Shown here: positions 12,301 through 42,458 of the stretch, piece after piece
How positions within the stretch are numbered: the first letter of the stretch is position 1
Layout: the number at the start of each line of letters is the position of its first letter
NCBI GenBank assembly: GCA_001897525.1
Contig: MKTB01000003.1
Location: 1-64,000 of the forward strand
Origin: Bacteroidetes bacterium 43-16
Lineage (GTDB): Bacteria; Bacteroidota; Bacteroidia; Chitinophagales; Chitinophagaceae
Reading direction: 5' to 3'
Length of the DNA stretch: 64,000 bases
Notes under the pieces: model-generated
The model's input: only the letters and a program-made list of their open reading frames with translations
What the model was told of the DNA's origin: nothing
Database searches by the model: none
Translations under genes and position numbers: made by a program

Positions 12301-12432
12301 TTATACGAGCAGTTCGATATGCAATTCAACGGGCGTAAGATCTATTGAATTTTTCCTGTTCAGACTTGCTAAACTCTATGCTTAAAAGTTTAATCCTCCA
12401 CAACTTTTCATGTTGCCCCCTGTATCTCCAGC

Positions 12433-12529
12433 CCTCAAAAATCAGGGCATAAAAAAAGAGACCACATCGCTGTGATCTCTTTTGCTCTCCCTTCAGGACT
12501 TGAACCTGAGACCCCCTGATTAACAGTCA
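12433..12529 (-). repeat. Left junction repeat (attL): tRNA-Asn terminator plus 3' 46 bp of tRNA-Asn
   Basis: About 97 bp nearly identical to 42331..42428; tRNA fragment 12484..12529 ends inside the anticodon stem, then diverges (cggggtatatgg). Confidence 0.9.
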
Positions 12530-12632
12530 CGGGGTATATGGTTTTTAGTGGTATAATAAAAACGTTTTATTGCTGATTGTCAGCATTTTATGATTTAACC
12601 AAATACAGAATAGACCAAACAAAACCAAAATT

Positions 12633-12654
12633 CCTGTGCAAATCCTGTGCAAAT
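12633..12654 (+). repeat. Tandem 11-bp repeat CCTGTGCAAAT x2 (candidate integrase arm-type site, left end)
   Basis: cctgtgcaaatcctgtgcaaat; also at 42056..42076 near the right end. Confidence 0.6.
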
Positions 12655-12673: not shown

Positions 12674-13897
12674 ATGAAAGTAAATGTAATCCTCGCACAA
12701 GATACGCGATATAAGAAAAAAGACGGTACTTTTCCTATAATTCTTCGCCTTTCAGCAAGTGACGAAGAAAGGACTTTGCCCATTCCTACGGGAATTAGCG
12801 TACCGCTGAAAGATTGGGACAACAAAAAACGGGAAGTTAAAAGCTCTTACGATGGTGTCACTTCTGTAACACGGCTTAATAATAGCTTGGCTGCCAAAAA
12901 GAAAAATGCAAATGACATTCTTCTTAAGTTAGATGAAGCAGGCGTACTTGATGCCATGAGCCTCATGGACGTAAAGCAGAAAATCGCAAACAAAAGTGAT
13001 GCTAACTCTTTTTACGTGTTTGGTGATAATCTTGTAGAGGAACTTAAAAAAGCGAAACGGATCGGGACGGCTGAATCCACGAGGGGCGTATTAAATGTAC
13101 TGCGCACTTTCACCAAAGGAAAGGATTTAAAATTTCAAGATATTACCTATCGTTTTCTGACAAGTTTTGAAACCGACCATTATAGTAAAGGAAATACGCC
13201 TAATGGACTGGCTGTTTATATGCGTACAATCCGTTCCATGTATAACAAGGCAATCAAAGCGGGTTTTGCTGAAAAAGATAAATACCCTTTTGAGCAATAC
13301 AAAATCAAAACCGTACCGACTGAAAAGCGCGCCTTAGAATGGGATATACTAAAACGTATTATTCTTTTGGACCTTGAACAAGGCCACAGGCTGTTTCATG
13401 CTCGCAATTACTTTGTAGCCAGTTATATGATGTACGGCATGAATTATACTGACATGGCATATCTTGAAAAAGAACACATTACAGACGGCAGAATTAAATA
13501 CCGCCGCAGAAAAACAAGCAAACTTTATGATATAAAGATAACTCCCGCCCTCAATAAAATATTATCCTATTACATCGCCCTTGACCCTTCATCGCCCTTT
13601 GTATTTCCGATCATTAAACGTGATACAGCCATAGCAATAGACAAAGACATTAAATATTCACGCAAACGCTATAATAACAAACTAAAGGAAATTGCGACAG
13701 GATGTGAGATTGAGCAGAACTTAACCAGCTATGTAAGCCGTCACTCCTTTGCAACACAAGCGATGCTCCAAGATGTGCCTATCAATGCAATCAGCAGCAT
13801 GCTTGGGCATTCAAGCCTAAAAACGACACAAATCTATTTAAAAAGCTTGCCCAATAACATTCTTGACAATTATAACGAAAGAATAATGCAGAGGTGA
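12674..13897 (+). CDS. Tyrosine-type site-specific recombinase (integrase), Bacteroidota type
   Basis: 407 aa; catalytic-region motif SYVSRHSFATQAMLQDVPINAISSMLGHSSLKTTQIYLKSL; adjacent to attL. Confidence 0.93.
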   Translation: MKVNVILAQDTRYKKKDGTFPIILRLSASDEERTLPIPTGISVPLKDWDNKKREVKSSYDGVTSVTRLNNSLAAKKKNANDILLKLDEAGVLDAMSLMDVKQKIANKSDANSFYVFGDNLVEELKKAKRIGTAESTRGVLNVLRTFTKGKDLKFQDITYRFLTSFETDHYSKGNTPNGLAVYMRTIRSMYNKAIKAGFAEKDKYPFEQYKIKTVPTEKRALEWDILKRIILLDLEQGHRLFHARNYFVASYMMYGMNYTDMAYLEKEHITDGRIKYRRRKTSKLYDIKITPALNKILSYYIALDPSSPFVFPIIKRDTAIAIDKDIKYSRKRYNNKLKEIATGCEIEQNLTSYVSRHSFATQAMLQDVPINAISSMLGHSSLKTTQIYLKSLPNNILDNYNERIMQR

Positions 13898-32121: not shown

Positions 32122-33021
32122 CTATAGATTTAACTGTTTCATATAGTTGACGGCTTTAGAAGCCTCACTTGCTGCGGTAATAATACAATTTTTGTTGTCT
32201 TTCAGAACTTTTAGCCAGCCTGCAATATAATTGGCATGATCGCCTTTTTGCGTTGTTGCAATATCAAATTCAGCACACAGGAATGCCGCGCCAAGTTCGG
32301 CAATCAATTCTTCAACGGCATACGCATTATCACCAAACTTTTTGCCTTTGGTGCGGTTAAGGCGTTTTTCAGCACCTGACCAATGTACCAACTCATGAAG
32401 CAAGGTCGAATAATAGCCCTCGGTGGCTGTAGAGGTTGCCGTTTCTTGGAAAGCCTCAACAGAGGGCATATAGATTTTATCTTCGCTCGGGCGGTAAAAT
32501 GCCCCGTCTTTACCGTGTTCAATAACGGCTTGTGTATTCTCTACAAAGCTATCAACAATTTCTAAGCGCTGAACCAAAGGAATAACCTCTTCTTTTGGCT
32601 GTTCCTCTTGCGGCTCATACCTGTTAAGCTGACAACGATTGAATACATGATATGATTTCAGGAACGGAATTTTCTTGATCTCATTATCTTCTTCTTTCTC
32701 GATGACATCATAATAAACAATCATAGAACCTTTTTCACCCTTGCGGATTGTTTCGTTTTTTTCCGACCATTGTTTAAAGGTTGCCCATTCGGCATTATTG
32801 AAATTCTTATTGATGTTGGCGCACCACAAAAGAATGATATTAATACCCTGATAATAGTTGCTACTGACGGCATTATAAGGCAGATCAAAGAACCCCTTAC
32901 TTGCTCCTCCTTGCCACGGCTGATGCCATGGAATAGTACCTTTTTCAAGTTGTGTAAGGATTGTATTGGTTACTTCTTGGTGAATATCGCGGCGATTTTC
33001 TGTTTTTACGGAGATGGTCAT
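32122..33021 (-). CDS. ArdC-like antirestriction protein (ssDNA-binding domain plus zincin-like metallopeptidase)
   Basis: IHQEVTNTILTQLEKGTIPWHQPWQGG N-terminus and STLLHELVHWSGAEKRLNR HExxH motif. Confidence 0.9.
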   Translation of the reverse strand: MTISVKTENRRDIHQEVTNTILTQLEKGTIPWHQPWQGGASKGFFDLPYNAVSSNYYQGINIILLWCANINKNFNNAEWATFKQWSEKNETIRKGEKGSMIVYYDVIEKEEDNEIKKIPFLKSYHVFNRCQLNRYEPQEEQPKEEVIPLVQRLEIVDSFVENTQAVIEHGKDGAFYRPSEDKIYMPSVEAFQETATSTATEGYYSTLLHELVHWSGAEKRLNRTKGKKFGDNAYAVEELIAELGAAFLCAEFDIATTQKGDHANYIAGWLKVLKDNKNCIITAASEASKAVNYMKQLNL

Positions 33022-33232
33022 TTTTAAATCCTTTCCTGTGGGGTAATGGTTACGTGAAAAGGCAAACCAAAGGGCAAGCGACCAAACCAACTCTTATTTT
33101 GGTTGGGCGGGTGAATTGCGCAGCAAGAGGAAAATAATTGTTTGTGTCGGGAGCGGCTTTGGTATTTTCTCGGATAACCATTCCACCCCTCCCAAACGGG
33201 AAAGGTGGAATGATTTATGCGTTAATATCAAC

Positions 33233-34138
33233 TCACAATCCGAGTTTCACCATGTGTGCAGCGTTTACGTCCTTGTAGGGAGCATAATTCTGGTTCATGG
33301 GTTGATGGATAAGATTGTCTTCGGTCTTGAAAAATTCGGCAAAAGCTTCTGTAGCCTTTTGCCCTGCCTCGTCATTATCGAGCCATGTATAAGCCCTTTC
33401 ATAGCCATAGCCCTTGATATAGGCGACTGCTTCTTTTATCTGGCTTAATGAGTTCAGGATAAGGGCATCATGTTTCAAGCGTTTTCCTTCATGCTGTGTA
33501 ATAACAGAAAGAAAATCCATAAAGCCCTCGAAGATATGTATGGCGGGTGGTTTGGGAATTTGACCACGAATGAAAGTGATCGACTTTTTGCCTACACAAC
33601 CTTTGAAATAAAGGTTGCGATATTCATAGCCCCGTTCTTCGTTTTTGATAGCAAGGGCAAAGAATGTCTTATCAGTTTTAGTGTTGGCTACACGAATTTC
33701 TTGCAAATAGGTTTTGGCAACACTTAAAGGAATACCCCGCCCTGACAAATATTGAATAAGGGCTGCGTGTTTAATCGGCTTAATCCCTTTCAAAACCGTT
33801 GAACGTACTTCCTCGCTCTGCTGTTGTCTATTGTGCTGAATAATCGGGATATGTGGGACTTGAAACATATTGCGAAACCATCGCAGACCGTCAGCAGGGG
33901 TACATTGAACGCCTGATCGTTCCAAATGCAGGCATACAAAGCTAAAGGCATCGCCCCCAATACCTTCTCCGTGGTCATACCAGACATTTTTCTGCGTATT
34001 CACATGAAAACTGGCGGTCTTTTCATTTCGGAAAGGGGAAAGATACCAAAGGTCATGGCCGTTCTGTTTCACTGGATTTAAGCCAAGTTTGCTCAAAATT
34101 TCGGCAATAGGTATAGTATTCGCAAATTCGATATTCAT
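33233..34138 (-). CDS. Toprim / CHC2-like primase domain protein
   Basis: LSPFRNEKTASFHVNTQKNVWYDHGEGIGGDAFSFV and toprim-like IHIFEGFMDFLSV...YTWLDNDEAGQKA. Confidence 0.85.
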   Translation of the reverse strand: MNIEFANTIPIAEILSKLGLNPVKQNGHDLWYLSPFRNEKTASFHVNTQKNVWYDHGEGIGGDAFSFVCLHLERSGVQCTPADGLRWFRNMFQVPHIPIIQHNRQQQSEEVRSTVLKGIKPIKHAALIQYLSGRGIPLSVAKTYLQEIRVANTKTDKTFFALAIKNEERGYEYRNLYFKGCVGKKSITFIRGQIPKPPAIHIFEGFMDFLSVITQHEGKRLKHDALILNSLSQIKEAVAYIKGYGYERAYTWLDNDEAGQKATEAFAEFFKTEDNLIHQPMNQNYAPYKDVNAAHMVKLGL

Positions 34139-35023: not shown

Positions 35024-36676
35024 ATGAAGATTAAAAGAATTAAAATTGAAAATTTTCGATCAATTGAGGCGGCAGAATTTTCAACCTCGGATTTCAACAT
35101 TTTTGTTGGTCAAAACAACTGTGGTAAAACCAACTTTTTCGAAGCCATTGAATTCTTTTTTAATGGCTTAGGTAGAGGAGCTAATATCAACGAACTAAAA
35201 TTCAGACGAGATAGCGAAAGAGAAATTCTTGTCGAAATTGAATTCGAGGGAGCATTAGATGGGGCAGCAAAAATGCAACACGCTGCTAATAAATCAAAGA
35301 TTGAAAATGCTTTAAACGGATCGGATAGCGTAATTCTAAGAAGGCTAAGTAGCACTGTAAGCAAACGAAAAATGTTTATAGGTGAAAATGAAGTGCAACC
35401 AGGTACGGGGTTTGATGCTGCCTTAAACGATTTCTTGCCCAAATTTGAATATATAAGCACCAAACAATATTATGATGCTGTTGCCAAATATTCAAAAACC
35501 ACACCAATCGGTGTGATGCTTTCCGGTGTTTTAAATGTGATTTTGCAAGGGAACCAACAATATCAGGAATTTCAAGATAAATTCTCCGAATTGTTTGAAG
35601 ACGATGGTTCCGAAATAAAAAAACAATTTGAAGCTATCGGAAATAAGGTTAAAATTCATTTAGAAAAGCAGTTTCCCGATACAACTAAAGTAAAATTTGA
35701 AGTAACCGCCCCTGCATTTGATGATTTATTGAAAAGCTTTTCTACGTCTATTGATGATGGAATAGAAACATCCGCAGAGGAAAAAGGTGATGGTATGCAA
35801 AGAGCTTTAATGCTTGCTATCATCCAAGCATACGCTGATTTTCGTAAACAAGGAGATGATACAGGTAAATCATTCTTGTTTTTTATTGATGAAGCTGAAT
35901 TACATTTGCATCCAACAGCCCAGCGTAATTTAAAAAATGTTCTTCATACGCTCTCGCAAGATACGGATCAGGTATTTATAAACACCCATTCTTCCGTCTT
36001 TGTTGCTGATAACTATCCTAATCAATCAATCTTGAAAGTAGAGAAAAGCGAAGGGAATACAGATATAAAGGTGACAACTGATTTAGAAAAACCCTATATC
36101 GTTTTTGAATTATTAGGGGGAAGCCCATCTGACCTTTTACTTCCCAGAAACTTTTTAATTGTTGAAGGAGAGAGTGAGTTTGAATTACTTACACGAGTAA
36201 TAAATAGATTTTATTCCGACAAGCCTGTTGTTCAGATCATCAAAGCAAATGGAGATATTGAGCAAGCAAAAAGAACAATTAATGCTATTGAGAAAGTATT
36301 TATCCCATTAAACACAAGTATTTATGCAGATAAATTAGTTATTTTACTTGATTGTCCGAGCGATCAAACTGTAGCTGGTGTAAATAATTTCAAAGCTAAC
36401 AACAACCATTTATCTGAAAATGGACAAATTCATATTTTAGCACATCGAGATATTGAACAAAGCTATCCTGATCAGGAGTGCGATATCTATACAAACTGGC
36501 GCAAAACACAAGAACAACTTGATGAAGTAAATCCAGCAGGGAGAAAGATAATTACAGGTACAAAGAAAAAGCAATTAGCGAAGTATGTCGGTAATAATAT
36601 TACGAGAGAACAATTTGAAGCTGATTTAAGTATTTGTCACGATGCTTTGAAAAAATGTTGGGAGCTTGCATTTTAA
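35024..36676 (+). CDS. OLD-family ATP-dependent endonuclease-like protein (AAA/ABC ATPase plus TOPRIM)
   Basis: MKIKRIKIENFRSIEAAEF...NIFVGQNNCGKTNFFEAIEFFF Walker A; FLFFIDEAELHLHPTAQRNL; TOPRIM-like FLIVEGESEFELLTRVI. Confidence 0.85.
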   Translation: MKIKRIKIENFRSIEAAEFSTSDFNIFVGQNNCGKTNFFEAIEFFFNGLGRGANINELKFRRDSEREILVEIEFEGALDGAAKMQHAANKSKIENALNGSDSVILRRLSSTVSKRKMFIGENEVQPGTGFDAALNDFLPKFEYISTKQYYDAVAKYSKTTPIGVMLSGVLNVILQGNQQYQEFQDKFSELFEDDGSEIKKQFEAIGNKVKIHLEKQFPDTTKVKFEVTAPAFDDLLKSFSTSIDDGIETSAEEKGDGMQRALMLAIIQAYADFRKQGDDTGKSFLFFIDEAELHLHPTAQRNLKNVLHTLSQDTDQVFINTHSSVFVADNYPNQSILKVEKSEGNTDIKVTTDLEKPYIVFELLGGSPSDLLLPRNFLIVEGESEFELLTRVINRFYSDKPVVQIIKANGDIEQAKRTINAIEKVFIPLNTSIYADKLVILLDCPSDQTVAGVNNFKANNNHLSENGQIHILAHRDIEQSYPDQECDIYTNWRKTQEQLDEVNPAGRKIITGTKKKQLAKYVGNNITREQFEADLSICHDALKKCWELAF

Positions 36677-37096: not shown

Positions 37097-38371
37097 ATGT
37101 CCTACCTTTTGAAGCGTGCAAACACCTACTATTACAACCGTAACACCCCTACCATTTACCGTGATCTTGACCCGCGCAAGAACGTGCGTATTTCTCTTGG
37201 CACGGCTTGCAAACGTACTGCATTGCGGAAATCATTGGCATTAGATGATTCCGTTGTGGAGTATTGGCAAAGCCTCCTTTCCGATAGTCAAAGCCACGAC
37301 CTTGAACGATTTGGAAAAATCGTTCATACAGCCCGCCAAATGGGCTTTGCCTATAAGCCAATCACCGAAATAGCAGCCCTGCCTATGCAGGAGCTATTAG
37401 AGCGGATATTGGCTTTACAGAGCGCATCCGAAAAACAGGTTAAAGCCGTTTTGGGTGGTAAAGAAGCGTCCAGCATCAGCCTAAGCCAAGCCTTAGAAAA
37501 ATACTGGCAGTTATCGCAAGACCTTGTATTCAACAAATCGGAAAGCCAGATAAGAAAGTGGCGTAATCCTCGTATCAAAGCCCTTAATAGCTTTATTGCC
37601 ATTGTCGGCGACAAGCCATTAAAAGAGATCACCAAAAGCGACATTACGGACTTTAGGGAATGGTGGGTAAAAAGGGTAAATAATGAGAACAAAGACCCTG
37701 ACAGTGCCAACAAGGATTTTATTCACCTGAAAGGCATTTTAGAGCTTGTTTCAGACCATGAAAGTATCGGGCTGGACATTTCCCACCTGTTTAAGAAAAT
37801 CAAGCTAAAAAAGGCGATTAAACAAACAAGGCTCCCCTTTACTTCGGAGCAAATTGTTTCGCTTGTAAACAATCCTAAGCTTTCAGAAATGGGAAGCGAT
37901 GGGCGCAATCTGCTTATGATCGTTGCGGAAACAGGCGCACGACCATCTGAAATTATCGGGTTACTGCCCGAAGATATTGTTCTTAATGATGCAATACCCC
38001 ATATCTGCATCAGGAACCGCAAAGATAAAATGCTGAAAACGCCACATAGCGAAAGAACAATTCCTTTGGTGGGCTATGCCTTAGAAGCATTCCGCAACTG
38101 TCCAAACGGATTTTTAAAATACCGCAATAAGCCCGACAACCTAACCAATGCAATTAGCAAATTTCTGCGGGATCATCGTTTAACTCCCTCCAAGCAGCAT
38201 ACCGTTTATTCTTTGCGGCATAGCTTCCAAGACAGGATTTTAAGTGTCAATGCGCCTGATCGGGTGCAAGCTGAATTGATGGGGCATAAATTCAACCGCC
38301 CTAAATACGGCAACGGGGCAAGTCTGGAACAAAAAAGAGATTGGCTGAATAAAATTAGGCTTACCACCTAA
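37097..38371 (+). CDS. Second tyrosine-type site-specific integrase (DUF6538-type N-terminus)
   Basis: MSYLLKRANTYYYNRNTPTIYRDLDPRKNVRISLGT; catalytic region TGARPSEIIGLLPEDI...VYSLRHSFQDRIL...AELMGHKF. Confidence 0.85.
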   Translation: MSYLLKRANTYYYNRNTPTIYRDLDPRKNVRISLGTACKRTALRKSLALDDSVVEYWQSLLSDSQSHDLERFGKIVHTARQMGFAYKPITEIAALPMQELLERILALQSASEKQVKAVLGGKEASSISLSQALEKYWQLSQDLVFNKSESQIRKWRNPRIKALNSFIAIVGDKPLKEITKSDITDFREWWVKRVNNENKDPDSANKDFIHLKGILELVSDHESIGLDISHLFKKIKLKKAIKQTRLPFTSEQIVSLVNNPKLSEMGSDGRNLLMIVAETGARPSEIIGLLPEDIVLNDAIPHICIRNRKDKMLKTPHSERTIPLVGYALEAFRNCPNGFLKYRNKPDNLTNAISKFLRDHRLTPSKQHTVYSLRHSFQDRILSVNAPDRVQAELMGHKFNRPKYGNGASLEQKRDWLNKIRLTT

Positions 38372-38373
38372 TT

Positions 38374-39021
38374 TTATTCAGATTCAAGATTGCTTTCAAA
38401 TGCAGCTTTCATATTTTCTATCTCTAGAAGGATCATATCAAGATTGCCATGTTGACTTTCATCGGAAAAGTAATTAGTCAATCCTGTATCTAGATGATCT
38501 TTCCAATTCAACAATGCATCAAAATATAATTCATCAATATAGCCTTTTTCGTTAGCTGCCTTCTCTCCAACATAACCATTATAAGGAATTGATGTTTCAT
38601 TTCTGAAAATTATAGTGGGGTCAACAATAGCCCCTATGCTTTCTCTAGCTCTTAACTCAAAGAATCCATAGACATTCAAAACAAGAGCATTAAAATTCCT
38701 ATCATCACCTTGTTTAATAACTGACGTCAGTTGTTCCTTACTCGGCAAAAGCGGAAAAAAATCTCTTACAACAAAAATATTGTAATATAGCTCTCCATCT
38801 GGCTCAAACAAACTCGAAGATTCTTTGTTAATCATCCAGATTTGACCATCAATTTCAATCGGAGTGTTAAATACCTGCAGTTTAGTTAAATCGTGAGTAT
38901 TATTTGTTAGAAACTCTGAACCTTCCAGACCATTAAATTCAACTTTTTTCCAAGTTTGCTTGTCATTCTGTAATCGGAAACGGGCACCTCTACCGGATAA
39001 TTCAATAAAATAATTGATCAT
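38374..39021 (-). CDS. Hypothetical protein
   Basis: 215 aa ORF, same strand as the peptidase operon. Confidence 0.5.
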   Translation of the reverse strand: MINYFIELSGRGARFRLQNDKQTWKKVEFNGLEGSEFLTNNTHDLTKLQVFNTPIEIDGQIWMINKESSSLFEPDGELYYNIFVVRDFFPLLPSKEQLTSVIKQGDDRNFNALVLNVYGFFELRARESIGAIVDPTIIFRNETSIPYNGYVGEKAANEKGYIDELYFDALLNWKDHLDTGLTNYFSDESQHGNLDMILLEIENMKAAFESNLESE

Positions 39022-39119
39022 TTACGTTAAGATTGAAAAATGTTTAGTAATAAAGAATTATGCGATTAAAAAAGCACAGAAAAGACTGATGCCCTTCCTA
39101 TGCTTAAAAAGTAATTTGA

Positions 39120-39614
39120 TTAATTTGCTCCTTGACAAATATAATCTATATCAGAGGAAAGTGCACAAACAAAATAACAAGAAACAACAATCCCAACAAC
39201 AGGATTAGTTATACCTAATCCTGCTAGCGCAACATTTGAAAAATAGAATTTAACAACATCTTTCCATGCATCTGAAGCTCCTTGCTGAACAAAGCTCTTA
39301 TCTGGATTTGATTGCACTAATTTACAAAGGACAGTCTTTAAGCTCCTAACCATTTCAATGAGCTTGTCTTCTATATCTTGTATTTTAAACCCTTTATAGA
39401 GTTCGTCCGGTAAGCCTTGTTGATTATCATAGAACAATTCTAAACAGTCTACAGTAAAACTATCAGGGTTTACTTTAGCATCATTAATTAATAGATGATG
39501 AAATTTTTCGCTCAATTCTTCCATTGAGTTCTTGTATATTTTTTCATCATTATCACTTAAATTTTCTGATACAAACTGTAATAAATATTCAACTTGTTCC
39601 TTTTTGTTGCTCAT
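39120..39614 (-). CDS. Hypothetical protein with hydrophobic C-terminus, coupled to peptidase gene
   Basis: 164 aa; TAATG overlap with upstream gene; C-terminal NVALAGLGITNPVVGIVVSCYFVCALSSDIDYICQGAN. Confidence 0.6.
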   Translation of the reverse strand: MSNKKEQVEYLLQFVSENLSDNDEKIYKNSMEELSEKFHHLLINDAKVNPDSFTVDCLELFYDNQQGLPDELYKGFKIQDIEDKLIEMVRSLKTVLCKLVQSNPDKSFVQQGASDAWKDVVKFYFSNVALAGLGITNPVVGIVVSCYFVCALSSDIDYICQGAN

Positions 39615-41194
39615 TATATTAAAATTTTTGGATAAAAGTCTGCTCCCATTTTTATAATTGGGTTGTAATAAATAATCTCTTTTGAAATACCTTTCTTTTT
39701 AGAATCTGTTGCATCAAAAATGAGTTCAAGTTCAGTTTTTCTATTTCTGCTATCTGTATCAAGCCAACCAATTGTAATGGCACGAGCGCGCCATAAGTAT
39801 TTTGCGTACCCTTTCTTCAATATTTTCTCACGATCTATAACATCTGGTTGACTTAATATATCCTTTTTAAAGTCACCAACTTCTGTAAGAAATATTTCCC
39901 ACTCAAAATATTGGAAATCAGATCCTGTTAAAGTGGATAATTCTTTCATCAACAAGTCTAGTTTACTAGAAAATCCTTGTACCTCATCAAGAATATCATG
40001 ATAACTAATTCTGATCTTATGATACAGAGGGATAATTAAACCTTCAATTATAGCAACTTTATGCTCTTTGTATTTTTTCTTAGCAGTTGGTTTTGGTGCA
40101 TGCCAAGTTGTGGAAACCTTCTGCCCAGTTGATTCTCCTATCTTACAATAACTATTATCAAATTCCATTTTTGTAAATGGACACAACTGATCATCATGTA
40201 CATAAAATTGCGTCATCCTTGATGTCAGTAATCTTAATCCATCAGACATCGGAAGTTCTCCTTCACCTCCTTCAAATGAAAAACCATTTATTGTTACAGC
40301 ATGATAACTTTTGCTGTTTTCATCGATTACAACCTTACCATCCTTTTCTAATTCGTTATATAATGATAATCCACAAATTAACGGAATCCCAGCTTTTAAA
40401 TAAGCGTATATATGAGATTTAATATTTCTATGTTGCTTTAGTCCAACTAACAAAGGATTCAATCCTAATTTTGATACCGCTACTCCCATTTGTTGCTGAC
40501 TCAACCCTATGCTAGGAAAACTTCTCATGTAAGAAGTTTCCGACAGCGCAAGTTTTGTGACCTCAGAAGGGGATGGAATACGATGCTGAAAACGTTTGCC
40601 AGTAATGTTAAATGCAGACCACAAAGCAATAGAGGCACAAACAGCTACTGTTTCATCTTGCTCTTGAAACGCCATACTTTGTACTTTTAGCTCAATCCCG
40701 TAAAGATTTACCGAATAATCTCTTTTTGCATGGTATCTTCTATTCCTCTCTTCATCTTCTTCATAATGCCTTATACAAGTACGACCAAGCATGAATCCAT
40801 TTTTAGCAGGCTTTAAGACGATAAATCCTAAATAATTGTCTTGCAAACTATACAGAGTTTTATCGTCTAAGCCTTCTGTCCAAATTTTTTTTAGTAGCCT
40901 ATTAGAAAATGAGAATTTTTCACCACGCTTATTATTACCCTTAAAGAAGTGTAAGCGCTTACAAAATCTATTATAATCCTGAAAACATCGTGCATAAAAA
41001 TTAGCGTAATCTTCCAAATAGTCTTTATCAACATAATTAGGCTCTATAAGAAACCTATCTGCCTTTAAATTTGCAAGTGTCTTTTCAAATGCTAAACTTG
41101 TCTGTGAATTATTTCCCGTCAACAGTTCAATTAAAGCCTTAGATTCTGTTTTGTAAGAATAAGTAGAGTTATCCTTTAATAAAGTAGAGGCCAT
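39614..41194 (-). CDS. Papain/C39-like cysteine peptidase-like protein
   Basis: FQEQDETVAVCASIALWSAF (Cys), ENSKSYHAVTINGF (His), FYVHDDQLCPFTKM (Asp) consistent with a papain-like triad. Confidence 0.6.
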   Translation of the reverse strand: MASTLLKDNSTYSYKTESKALIELLTGNNSQTSLAFEKTLANLKADRFLIEPNYVDKDYLEDYANFYARCFQDYNRFCKRLHFFKGNNKRGEKFSFSNRLLKKIWTEGLDDKTLYSLQDNYLGFIVLKPAKNGFMLGRTCIRHYEEDEERNRRYHAKRDYSVNLYGIELKVQSMAFQEQDETVAVCASIALWSAFNITGKRFQHRIPSPSEVTKLALSETSYMRSFPSIGLSQQQMGVAVSKLGLNPLLVGLKQHRNIKSHIYAYLKAGIPLICGLSLYNELEKDGKVVIDENSKSYHAVTINGFSFEGGEGELPMSDGLRLLTSRMTQFYVHDDQLCPFTKMEFDNSYCKIGESTGQKVSTTWHAPKPTAKKKYKEHKVAIIEGLIIPLYHKIRISYHDILDEVQGFSSKLDLLMKELSTLTGSDFQYFEWEIFLTEVGDFKKDILSQPDVIDREKILKKGYAKYLWRARAITIGWLDTDSRNRKTELELIFDATDSKKKGISKEIIYYNPIIKMGADFYPKILI

Positions 41195-41203
41195 AAAATG
41201 GAA

Positions 41204-41422
41204 TTATTTTACAATCTCGAAAGGCTTATGCAACATTTCATTTGATACGCGGGTATCAAATGCACTTTCTCGGCACTGGATATTTTTTGCGGCTTCATTT
41301 GCTTCGTTAACAAGTTGCTCAATTTCTTCTTTAGAGCGTTTGCCTTCAACAGCAGCTTTAAAATTCTCAATAGACATATCTAACAGCCTATTGCTTTTAG
41401 TTGTTTCTTCGAGTGTTGCCAT
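41204..41422 (-). CDS. Small hypothetical protein at the head of the peptidase operon
   Basis: 72 aa, ends 9 bp before the peptidase start. Confidence 0.5.
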   Translation of the reverse strand: MATLEETTKSNRLLDMSIENFKAAVEGKRSKEEIEQLVNEANEAAKNIQCRESAFDTRVSNEMLHKPFEIVK

Positions 41423-41966
41423 GTGTGTCGTTTTAATAAAAGGAGTGCAAAATTAAGAACAATTTTTTAATTAAAATCATTATAATGCTAAAATAAATAA
41501 AACAACAAATAATATTTAGTTTACTTATTCACAGGCATCTAACAAAATTTCTCTCTGTTTTTCAATCACCTATTAAAATGGACAATAATTATTCCTACTA
41601 AATTTTGTTCAATTTAACCGTTTTTCATCAAAAACATTTCAAATCAATACTTAGAACGATAGAAAACAAGCGATTTTTAAAGCGTCTATTTAACCCAATC
41701 GAGCTCAATCACCACTTGGAAATTCCCATGGAATACTTGTTTCTTTAGTCAATAACGCCAATTGGCTCATGCATTGTTACATACATATACTTCTCCAACC
41801 ATTGAAATAGTGCATTCCATTTTTTCGGTGCCCCAAACCAAGTGCTAATCTCCATATCAAAACTCACTACAAAACCATTGTGAACTATTTTGACAACAGG
41901 CCTAACAGTGCATCCGCAGAATCATTCAATGCTAAGATCAAGGCCTTCAGAAGACAATTTAGGAGA

Positions 41967-42040: not shown

Positions 42041-42055
42041 AATTTGATCCATTTT

Positions 42056-42076
42056 CTGTGCAAATCCTGTGCAAAT
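42056..42076 (+). repeat. Tandem 11-bp repeat (C)CTGTGCAAAT x2 (candidate integrase arm-type site, right end)
   Basis: ctgtgcaaatcctgtgcaaat matching 12633..12654. Confidence 0.6.
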
Positions 42077-42079
42077 AAA

Positions 42080-42113
42080 AAAGGGTTTCAGTTTTAAAAC
42101 GCTGAAACCCTTT
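42080..42113 (-). terminator. tRNA-Asn copy 1 terminator
   Basis: AAAGGGTTTCAG/CTGAAACCCTTT with T-run on the minus strand. Confidence 0.75.
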
Positions 42114-42121
42114 ACTGGCTT

Positions 42122-42197
42122 GCTCTCCCTGCTGGACTTGAACCAGCGACCCCCTGATTAACAGTCAGGTGCTCTAACCAACTGAGCTAAGGAAGAA
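42122..42197 (-). tRNA. tRNA-Asn(GTT), copy 1
   Basis: Reverse complement TTCTTCCTTAGCTCAGTTGGTTAGAGCACCTGACTGTTAATCAGGGGGTCGCTGGTTCAAGTCCAGCAGGGAGAGC; anticodon GTT. Confidence 0.93.
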
Positions 42198-42355
42198 TTT
42201 TTCAATCCGCTTTCCGCTGATTGGACTGCAAATATAAGGAGCGTTTTGGATTCTCCAAATATCTTTTTTCACCGAACAGCAAAGCTATATGTTTTTATTA
42301 ATCCACAAGTTTTGCTATTGATCACTAACCCCTCAAAAATCAGGGCATAAAAAAA

Positions 42356-42379
42356 AGAGACCACATTACTGTGATCTCT
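42356..42379 (-). terminator. tRNA-Asn copy 2 terminator
   Basis: AGAGACCAC-attact-GTGATCTCT with T-run on the minus strand; same structure at 12457..12480. Confidence 0.7.
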
Positions 42380-42382
42380 TTT

Positions 42383-42458
42383 GCTCTCCCTTCAGGACTT
42401 GAACCTGAGACCCCCTGATTAACAGTCAGGTGCTCTAACCAACTGAGCTAAGGAAGAA
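42383..42458 (-). tRNA. tRNA-Asn(GTT), copy 2
   Basis: Same cloverleaf as copy 1 with a different T-arm (CTCAGGTTCAAGTCCTGAA); 3' half identical to the attL fragment. Confidence 0.93.

What the first reader, a model, noticed from the sequence alone, without database searches (positions are those of the whole stretch)
38374..41422. Undescribed-looking operon: papain/C39-like cysteine peptidase coupled to a membrane-tail protein in mobile cargo
Minus-strand cluster of a 72 aa protein, a 526 aa protein with Cys (AVCASIALWSAF), His (SYHAVTINGF) and Asp (YVHDDQLCPF) in papain-like order, a 164 aa protein whose start overlaps the peptidase stop (TAATG) and which ends in a hydrophobic segment, and a 215 aa unknown. 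Proximity to a dedicated integrase and an OLD-family protein is the setting where anti-phage or abortive-infection modules are found. The peptidase fold is inference from motifs. The idea that the membrane-tailed or 72 aa protein is a substrate or effector is speculation.
Basis: partly seen in the sequence, partly recalled or inferred. Interest (0 to 1): 0.72.

Follow-up and report, generated by a model that had tools for sequence, protein, structure and literature searches.

The report
Mobile cysteine protease with tail-bearing partner
A mobile element carries a papain-like protease encoded beside a tiny partner protein whose last few residues are conserved and may sit in the protease's active site; the pair occurs, unnamed, in scattered bacteria (including some E. 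coli), often among anti-virus genes, and looks like an undescribed protein switch.

Summary
The four minus-strand ORFs are real, with the Cys, His and Asp motifs as reported. None of the four proteins reaches a curated cut-off in Pfam or NCBIfam, and PADLOC and PHROGs give only weak hits. AlphaFold2 (pLDDT 80, pTM 0.80) plus Foldseek give a papain-like fold, and some homologues hit Pfam Peptidase_C39_2.

The conserved unit is not the four-gene operon but two genes: the peptidase and a tiny helical protein. In the main clade the tiny gene lies upstream in 31 of 32 checkable loci; in a distant sister clade it follows the peptidase. The tiny protein's C-terminus is conserved. In a fused model that tail forms a strand, apparently in the substrate cleft. 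A Proteus/E. coli branch that has lost the catalytic Cys and His has also changed the tail, while staying under purifying selection.

The pair is patchy and mobile. It lies beside bacterial ubiquitin-like conjugation operons in 7 loci, in four separate parts of the tree. The 164-aa membrane-tailed protein was found only here and in Chryseobacterium; the 215-aa protein is not part of the unit.

Best reading: a cysteine-protease switch gated by its partner's tail, probably defensive. Fold and pairing are supported; gating and defence are inferred.

The parts
41204..41422 (-). 72-aa helical small protein, partner of the peptidase; conserved C-terminal tail (NEMLHKPFEIVK-COOH)
   Evidence: A counterpart lies upstream of the peptidase in nearly all main-clade loci with a conserved C-terminus. 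Coding shown by codon-position bias in related pairs.
39614..41194 (-). 526-aa papain/C39-fold cysteine peptidase; triad C186, H298, D334 (or D335)
   Evidence: Structure model. Triad conservation. Homologues hit Pfam PF13529.
40637..40639 (-). codon of the catalytic Cys186
   Evidence: Sequence and alignment; Cys at the start of helix 186-202 in the model.
39120..39614 (-). 164-aa protein with hydrophobic C-terminal segment, start overlapping the peptidase stop (TAATG); lineage-specific third gene
   Evidence: Only relative in the same position: 158 aa in Chryseobacterium defluvii L011 9629-10105, 31% identity, E about 1e-21. Hydropathy.
38374..39021 (-). 215-aa protein; adjacent passenger, not part of the conserved unit
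   Evidence: No relative near any peptidase homologue or in 150 related genomes. Partial matches on Lactiplantibacillus and Paenibacillus plasmids.
37097..38371 (+). tyrosine integrase with DUF6538, ending just before the end of the convergent 215-aa gene (mobile context)
35024..36676 (+). OLD-like ATPase (defence-type neighbour, opposite strand)
42053..42457 (.). right end of the integrated element: att-like repeat 42053-42076 and tandem tRNA-Asn genes 42122-42196 and 42383-42457
   Evidence: direct repeats of 12432-12538 and 12631-12654.

Best explanation
This is a two-gene, horizontally moving module: a papain/C39-fold cysteine peptidase made together with a 40-84-aa mostly helical partner. 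SHOWN: the pairing, coding status and selection, conserved triad, patchy mobile distribution, the conserved C-terminus of the partner, and recurrent placement beside ubiquitin-like (Ubl) conjugation operons; the fold is a confident prediction. INFERRED: the partner's C-terminal tail lies in the substrate cleft of the peptidase and keeps it off (or is its built-in substrate); infection or stress removes the partner, freeing the protease to cut one or more cell or phage proteins, giving abortive-type protection and maintenance of the mobile element. In the window's lineage a translationally coupled 164-aa membrane-tailed protein has been added, perhaps as anchor, substrate or membrane effector. 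The 215-aa neighbour is a passenger.
For: Fold: AF2 pLDDT 80/pTM 0.80; Foldseek top hits staphopains, probability 0.99-1.0 and E 1e-4 to 1e-3, and C39 ComA probability 0.99. A second, longer homologue again hits staphopain, xylellain and phytochelatin synthase. Some homologues reach Pfam Peptidase_C39_2 (best 7.2e-7; P. aeruginosa 3.9e-5, above the cut-off). Triad present in the main-clade and sister-clade members with that stretch, except Proteus/E. coli W2-5 and one doubtful distant hit, L062. Pairing: a small same-strand ORF upstream in 31 of 32 checkable main-clade loci and downstream, overlapping the stop or directly after it, in 7 of 7 checkable sister-clade loci, ending e.g. SQITAANVILTM. 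Codon-position changes in the Geobacteraceae/Desulfuromonadaceae small ORF pair are 8/6/27, dN 0.15 vs dS 2.8. Tail: hydrophobic residue at -1, -3 and -7 in 18, 20 and 21 of 25 against a 27% background (sequences not independent). Fused-chain AF2 of the Neptunomonas pair: tail residues TYT become a strand in an otherwise helical partner, with the linker below pLDDT 50; a matching 3-residue strand GLT appears in the conserved FPNxGL(T/S) loop before the next helix, the place of papain's Gly65-Gly66. Proteus and 19 E. coli genomes carry a branch in which, in the two members read, Cys and His are both Tyr and the tail ends YEA instead of Y-x-L, while peptidase and partner stay under purifying selection (dN/dS about 0.05 and 0.11). 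Patchy: 12 of 396 Bacteroidota and 6 of 369 gammaproteobacterial genomes. Defence-type neighbours: OLD, ABC-3C with HNH, caspase-like and HamB-like helicase, Ppl/TrlF-like, UvrD-like helicase, Ubl operons.
Against: No functional data. The docking comes from an artificial fused chain with 19 rows and tail pLDDT around 70; I saw only secondary structure, not coordinates, and ran no mutated-tail control. The pseudo-enzyme branch shows catalysis is not needed everywhere. The partner's N-terminal part is very variable. Defence islands gather unrelated systems, so neighbours are weak evidence. One locus (L055) lacks a recognisable partner gene.
Confidence: 0.45

Rival explanations
1. The small protein is the substrate, not the inhibitor: the peptidase trims or cuts its C-terminal region, releasing a bioactive fragment or maturing the protein, as C39 peptidases do with leader peptides.
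For: C39 peptidases process small co-encoded peptides; the tail pattern (short helix then extended tail with spaced hydrophobics) recalls leader binding by C39 domains (known structures 6mpz and 6v9z appear among Foldseek hits). The tail seems to sit in the cleft.
Against: The tail ends at or near the modelled cleft, so little would be released; no double-glycine motif at the tail; no exporter or modifying enzyme noticed beside the pair; the conserved part is the C-terminus, the reverse of leader-core precursors; a catalytically dead branch keeps a coding partner.
Confidence: 0.22
2. The peptidase is an accessory of bacterial ubiquitin-like systems: it removes or processes the Ubl, or the Ubl system tags the small partner to switch the peptidase.
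For: Multiubiquitin + E1 (with E2 and/or DUF6527 or JAB in several) lie within 4.5 kb in 7 of about 33 main-clade loci, in four separate parts of the tree (at least four changes forced by starred branches), in tandem, convergent and divergent orders. Multi_ubiq occurs in only 21 of 396 Bacteroidota genomes, so such proximity is not expected by chance.
Against: Most loci, including the window, have no Ubl genes nearby, and the window's genome has no Multi_ubiq match (no control genome rang, but the same search finds the family in related genomes). At least one of the Ubl operons already encodes a JAB peptidase domain.
Confidence: 0.13
3. A plain addiction module: protease toxin and small antitoxin that stabilise mobile elements, with no anti-phage role.
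For: Small gene first, overlapping or close genes, plasmid, tRNA-island and integrated-element carriers, patchy distribution.
Against: Peptidases of 500-700 aa with extra conserved regions are unusual TA toxins; recurrent Ubl and defence-type neighbours; a conserved pseudo-enzyme branch.
Confidence: 0.12
4. In the window the 164-aa membrane-tailed protein is the effector, cleaved and released by the peptidase (gasdermin-like logic).
For: Overlapping start codon and C-terminal hydrophobic segment in both lineages that have it.
Against: Only two lineages have it; the rest of the family does without. No structure or homology to a pore former.
Confidence: 0.05

Closest known systems
Peptidase family C39 / Pfam PF13529 Peptidase_C39_2
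   Same: Papain-like fold, Cys-His-Asp order with matching local motifs; several homologues hit PF13529.
   Different: Window protein has no Pfam match; about 180 residues precede the catalytic Cys and about 190 follow the Asp, both parts conserved and unassigned; no ABC transporter.
Staphopain-staphostatin pairs
   Same: Papain-fold protease with a small co-encoded protein; staphopains are the best structural matches, and staphostatin-bound chains are among them. That staphostatin is a small inhibitor lying in the cleft is general knowledge plus the PDB titles.
   Different: Here the partner is predicted helical with a conserved free C-terminus rather than a beta-barrel; no secretion signal was noticed (not scanned for); cytoplasmic setting is inferred.
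Bacterial ubiquitin-like conjugation operons (multiubiquitin/E1/E2/JAB, described in PMC1779556 and reviewed in PMC11354881; Bub operons in PMC13373217)
   Same: Repeated neighbours of the pair.
   Different: The peptidase is not a JAB protein; the passages searched in those papers do not describe a papain-like peptidase as part of such operons.
Protease-armed anti-phage systems (caspase-like CBASS, gasdermin, SAVED/CRISPR proteases; general knowledge)
   Same: A protease as presumed effector in defence-rich mobile regions.
   Different: No sensor domain, nucleotide cyclase or gasdermin recognised with it; PADLOC has no model for it.

Membership tests
Papain-like fold, C39-type peptidase | Cys at the start of the central helix, followed by His on a strand and Asp/Asn on the next strand | tested here: met
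   Helix 186-202 starts at C186; H298 in strand 287-306; D334 ends strand 329-334; conserved in the family
Papain-like fold, C39-type peptidase | Fold match to solved members | tested here: met
   Staphopains probability 0.99-1.0, ComA peptidase 0.99
Papain-like fold, C39-type peptidase | Match to the curated profile PF13529 | tested here: inconclusive
   Not for the window protein; yes for 3 of 12 aligned homologues (best 7.2e-7) and the P. aeruginosa homologue above cut-off
C39 bacteriocin-processing peptidase (leader peptidase) | Attached to or beside an ABC exporter, with a double-glycine substrate | tested here: not met
   No exporter noticed beside the pair and no GG at the conserved tail of the small proteins
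Protease-inhibitor pair of staphopain-staphostatin type | Small co-encoded protein binds in the active-site cleft | tested here: inconclusive
   Fused AF2 model places the tail as a strand, apparently in the cleft; no coordinates or experiment
Type II toxin-antitoxin module | Toxicity of one gene neutralised by the other | not testable with these tools
   Needs expression experiment
Known anti-phage defence system (PADLOC 2.0.0) | Match to a model of a described system | tested here: not met
   Peptidase, 72-aa and 215-aa proteins 0 families; the 164-aa protein only one weak hit, E 0.011
Bacterial ubiquitin-like operon component | Present in the operon in most carriers | tested here: not met
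   7 of about 33 main-clade loci; none in the window, no Multi_ubiq match in its genome

The most novel reading that the evidence does not exclude
A tail-gated protease switch of bacterial immunity: the free C-terminus of a tiny partner is threaded into the active site of a papain-fold protease, losing or editing it (infection, stress, or Ubl tagging) fires the protease, one branch has become a pseudo-protease that still keeps its re-tuned partner, and the window's branch adds a membrane-tailed effector. It would link papain-type proteases to ubiquitin-like conjugation in bacteria.
Probability: 0.18. Interest if true: 0.87.

Novelty: new variant of a known kind. Interest (0 to 1): 0.62.

Why it matters
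The pair is spread over at least three phyla, including 20 of 5,426 complete E. coli genomes, and every annotated copy seen is called 'hypothetical protein'. It gives a concrete protease-partner system in which a conserved C-terminal tail can be tested by point mutation, it includes a natural active-site-dead branch with a correspondingly altered tail, and it repeatedly sits beside bacterial ubiquitin-like operons. It could supply a bacterial example of papain-fold proteases tied to Ubl biology, a link that PMC1779556 raised as a possibility in 2006.

Tried and rejected
Four-gene operon: rejected, because the 215-aa gene shows no co-occurrence and the 164-aa gene is in two lineages only. Phage origin: no match of a homologue in 50,697 phage records; a few viral-contig hits exist. 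Host Ubl system: Multi_ubiq not found in the window's genome. Solved-structure sequence search with the family profile: nothing; 164-aa nothing; 215-aa only noise. BFVD fold search: phage-protein matches with E above 0.001, not pursued. Literature: no paper in the library names DUF6527 or the protein accessions tried, and a search for C39-like peptidase with anti-phage found none; DefensePredictor (PMC13092281) does not mention such a peptidase in its main text. The library lacks most subscription papers, so this is not proof that the pair is undescribed. A Pfam DUF2570 hit for the 72-aa protein (9e-4, below cut-off) was taken as helical-composition noise.

Full report
Observation. The four minus-strand ORFs and the motifs are exactly as described. 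None of the four proteins reaches a curated cut-off in Pfam or NCBIfam, and PADLOC and PHROGs give nothing better than weak hits. Upstream on the plus strand lie an OLD-like ATPase and a tyrosine integrase. The low-GC region from about 12.4 to 42.4 kb is bounded by direct repeats of tRNA-Asn 3' sequence and a 24-nt repeat (12432-12538 and 12631-12654 against 42330-42437 and 42053-42076) and starts with another integrase-like gene (12674-13897, by eye). It therefore reads as an integrated element, with the peptidase genes at its tRNA end.

What the peptidase is. With 12 homologues, AlphaFold2 gives pLDDT 80 and pTM 0.80. Foldseek's best solved matches are staphopains (probability 0.99-1.0), and C39 peptidase domains follow. 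C186 starts a helix, H298 is on a strand and D334 ends the next strand. A longer homologue gives the same fold. The window protein has no Pfam hit, but several homologues hit Peptidase_C39_2. So 'papain-like fold, C39-type' is supported; 'C39 leader peptidase' is not (no exporter noticed beside it, no GG site).

The conserved unit. Relatives were taken from 200 related genomes, a species-level genome collection, a phylum draw, a class draw around Proteus, plasmids, viral contigs and complete E. coli. In the main clade a 40-84-aa same-strand ORF lies upstream in 31 of 32 loci with enough sequence to check. Three further loci could not be checked and L055 lacks it. In most the gap is under 90 nt; in L081 it is 274 nt. 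In the four plasmid and two E. coli records the small ORF is an annotated gene. In a distant sister clade (eight loci) the order is reversed: a 62-76-aa ORF overlaps the peptidase stop or follows it directly in all seven loci that could be checked, usually with a closely similar C-terminus. Coding is shown by third-position bias (8/6/27; dN 0.15, dS 2.8).

The tail. Aligned without gaps from the C-terminus, 25 small proteins show hydrophobic residues at -1, -3 and -7 (18, 20 and 21 of 25; background 27%). The window and Chryseobacterium proteins carry the same pattern two residues further in (NEMLHKPFEI-VK, DEIMKKPFEI-VR). The sequences are related, so the binomial values overstate significance, but the pattern recurs in divergent sub-clades.

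Does the tail reach the active site? In many loci the small ORF and the peptidase are in one frame, so reading the intervening stops as residues gives a fused chain. For Neptunomonas the small part is helical except for residues TYT of ...ARTYTL, which become a strand; confidence drops below 50 immediately after it. A matching short strand in the peptidase, absent at that place in the window model, is GLT in the conserved FPNxGL(T/S) loop just before the next helix, which by position corresponds to papain's Gly65-Gly66 that pairs with substrate backbone (general knowledge). I infer substrate-like docking. Limits: shallow alignment, artificial linker, no coordinates seen, no mutant control.

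A natural test. In Proteus hauseri the catalytic Cys and His are both Tyr, and its partner ends YEA instead of Y-x-L. The same double change and tail occur in E. coli W2-5; 19 of 5,426 E. coli genomes carry this form at about 73% DNA identity to Proteus (only W2-5 was read). The pair is under purifying selection (peptidase dN 0.16/dS 2.95; small protein 0.19/1.68). Another E. coli (R2) has an intact triad and a SYSL tail. The tail therefore changes together with the active site, which fits contact between them, and one branch seems to work without catalysis. This is one evolutionary event, so it is suggestive only.

Context. The family is rare and patchy (12 of 396 Bacteroidota, 6 of 369 gammaproteobacteria), sits on plasmids and islands, and its tree mixes phyla. 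Neighbours include the OLD ATPase (window), an ABC-3C system with HNH (E. coli W2-5), a caspase-like protein and HamB-like helicase (Hymenobacter), a Ppl/TrlF-like ATPase (Shewanella), a UvrD-like helicase (Caballeronia), and FRG-domain, GTPase and CbtA genes (E. coli R2). Seven loci lie within 4.5 kb of a multiubiquitin/E1 operon, some with Prok-E2, JAB or DUF6527. These loci occupy four separate places on the tree (at least four changes forced by well-supported branches) and use different gene orders. Since Multi_ubiq occurs in about 5% of Bacteroidota genomes, this is unlikely to be chance, though shared residence in defence islands could explain part of it.

The other genes. The 164-aa protein has one clear relative, in the same position in Chryseobacterium (31% identity), with a hydrophobic C-terminal segment in both. 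The 215-aa protein matches only sequences on Gram-positive plasmids, over half its length. Neither is needed for the family at large.

Interpretation. I rank a protease held by its partner's tail highest (0.45), then substrate processing (0.22), a Ubl accessory (0.13) and plain addiction (0.12).

Noticed in passing
L020 7638-9920 (Proteus hauseri) and L111 11760-14049 (E. coli W2-5): Branch with catalytic Cys and His both replaced by Tyr, under purifying selection, and a partner tail ending YEA: a conserved pseudo-peptidase.
   Followed up: partly
L053, L057-L061 (mostly distant Bacteroidota): Sister clade with reversed gene order: small ORF overlaps or follows the peptidase stop and usually ends ...VILTM-like.
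   Followed up: partly
L016-L020, L026, L027, L042, L043, L112: Long forms (about 660-726 aa) carry a conserved C-terminal region with GHPxLTGxKPARIxGE and NxKSGRYS-like motifs and no Pfam match.
   Followed up: no
L078 and L080: An HTH-like gene of about 123 aa lies between the divergent Ubl operon and the small gene plus peptidase; possible shared regulation.
   Followed up: no
window 12432-42457: Integrated element at tandem tRNA-Asn genes with direct-repeat ends, an integrase-like gene at 12674-13897 and a second integrase at 37097-38371.
   Followed up: partly
window 32122-33090 and 33233-34138: By eye an ArdC-like antirestriction protein and a primase/TOPRIM-type protein; not tested with profiles.
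   Followed up: no
window 38374-39021; L109 1157-1477: The 215-aa protein shares about 34% identity over half its length with a hypothetical protein on a 3.3-kb Lactiplantibacillus plasmid.
   Followed up: partly
window 41448-41455: TAATTTTG, matching the Bacteroidota -7 element TAnnTTTG, 26 nt before the 72-aa start; no clear -33 TTG seen.
   Followed up: no
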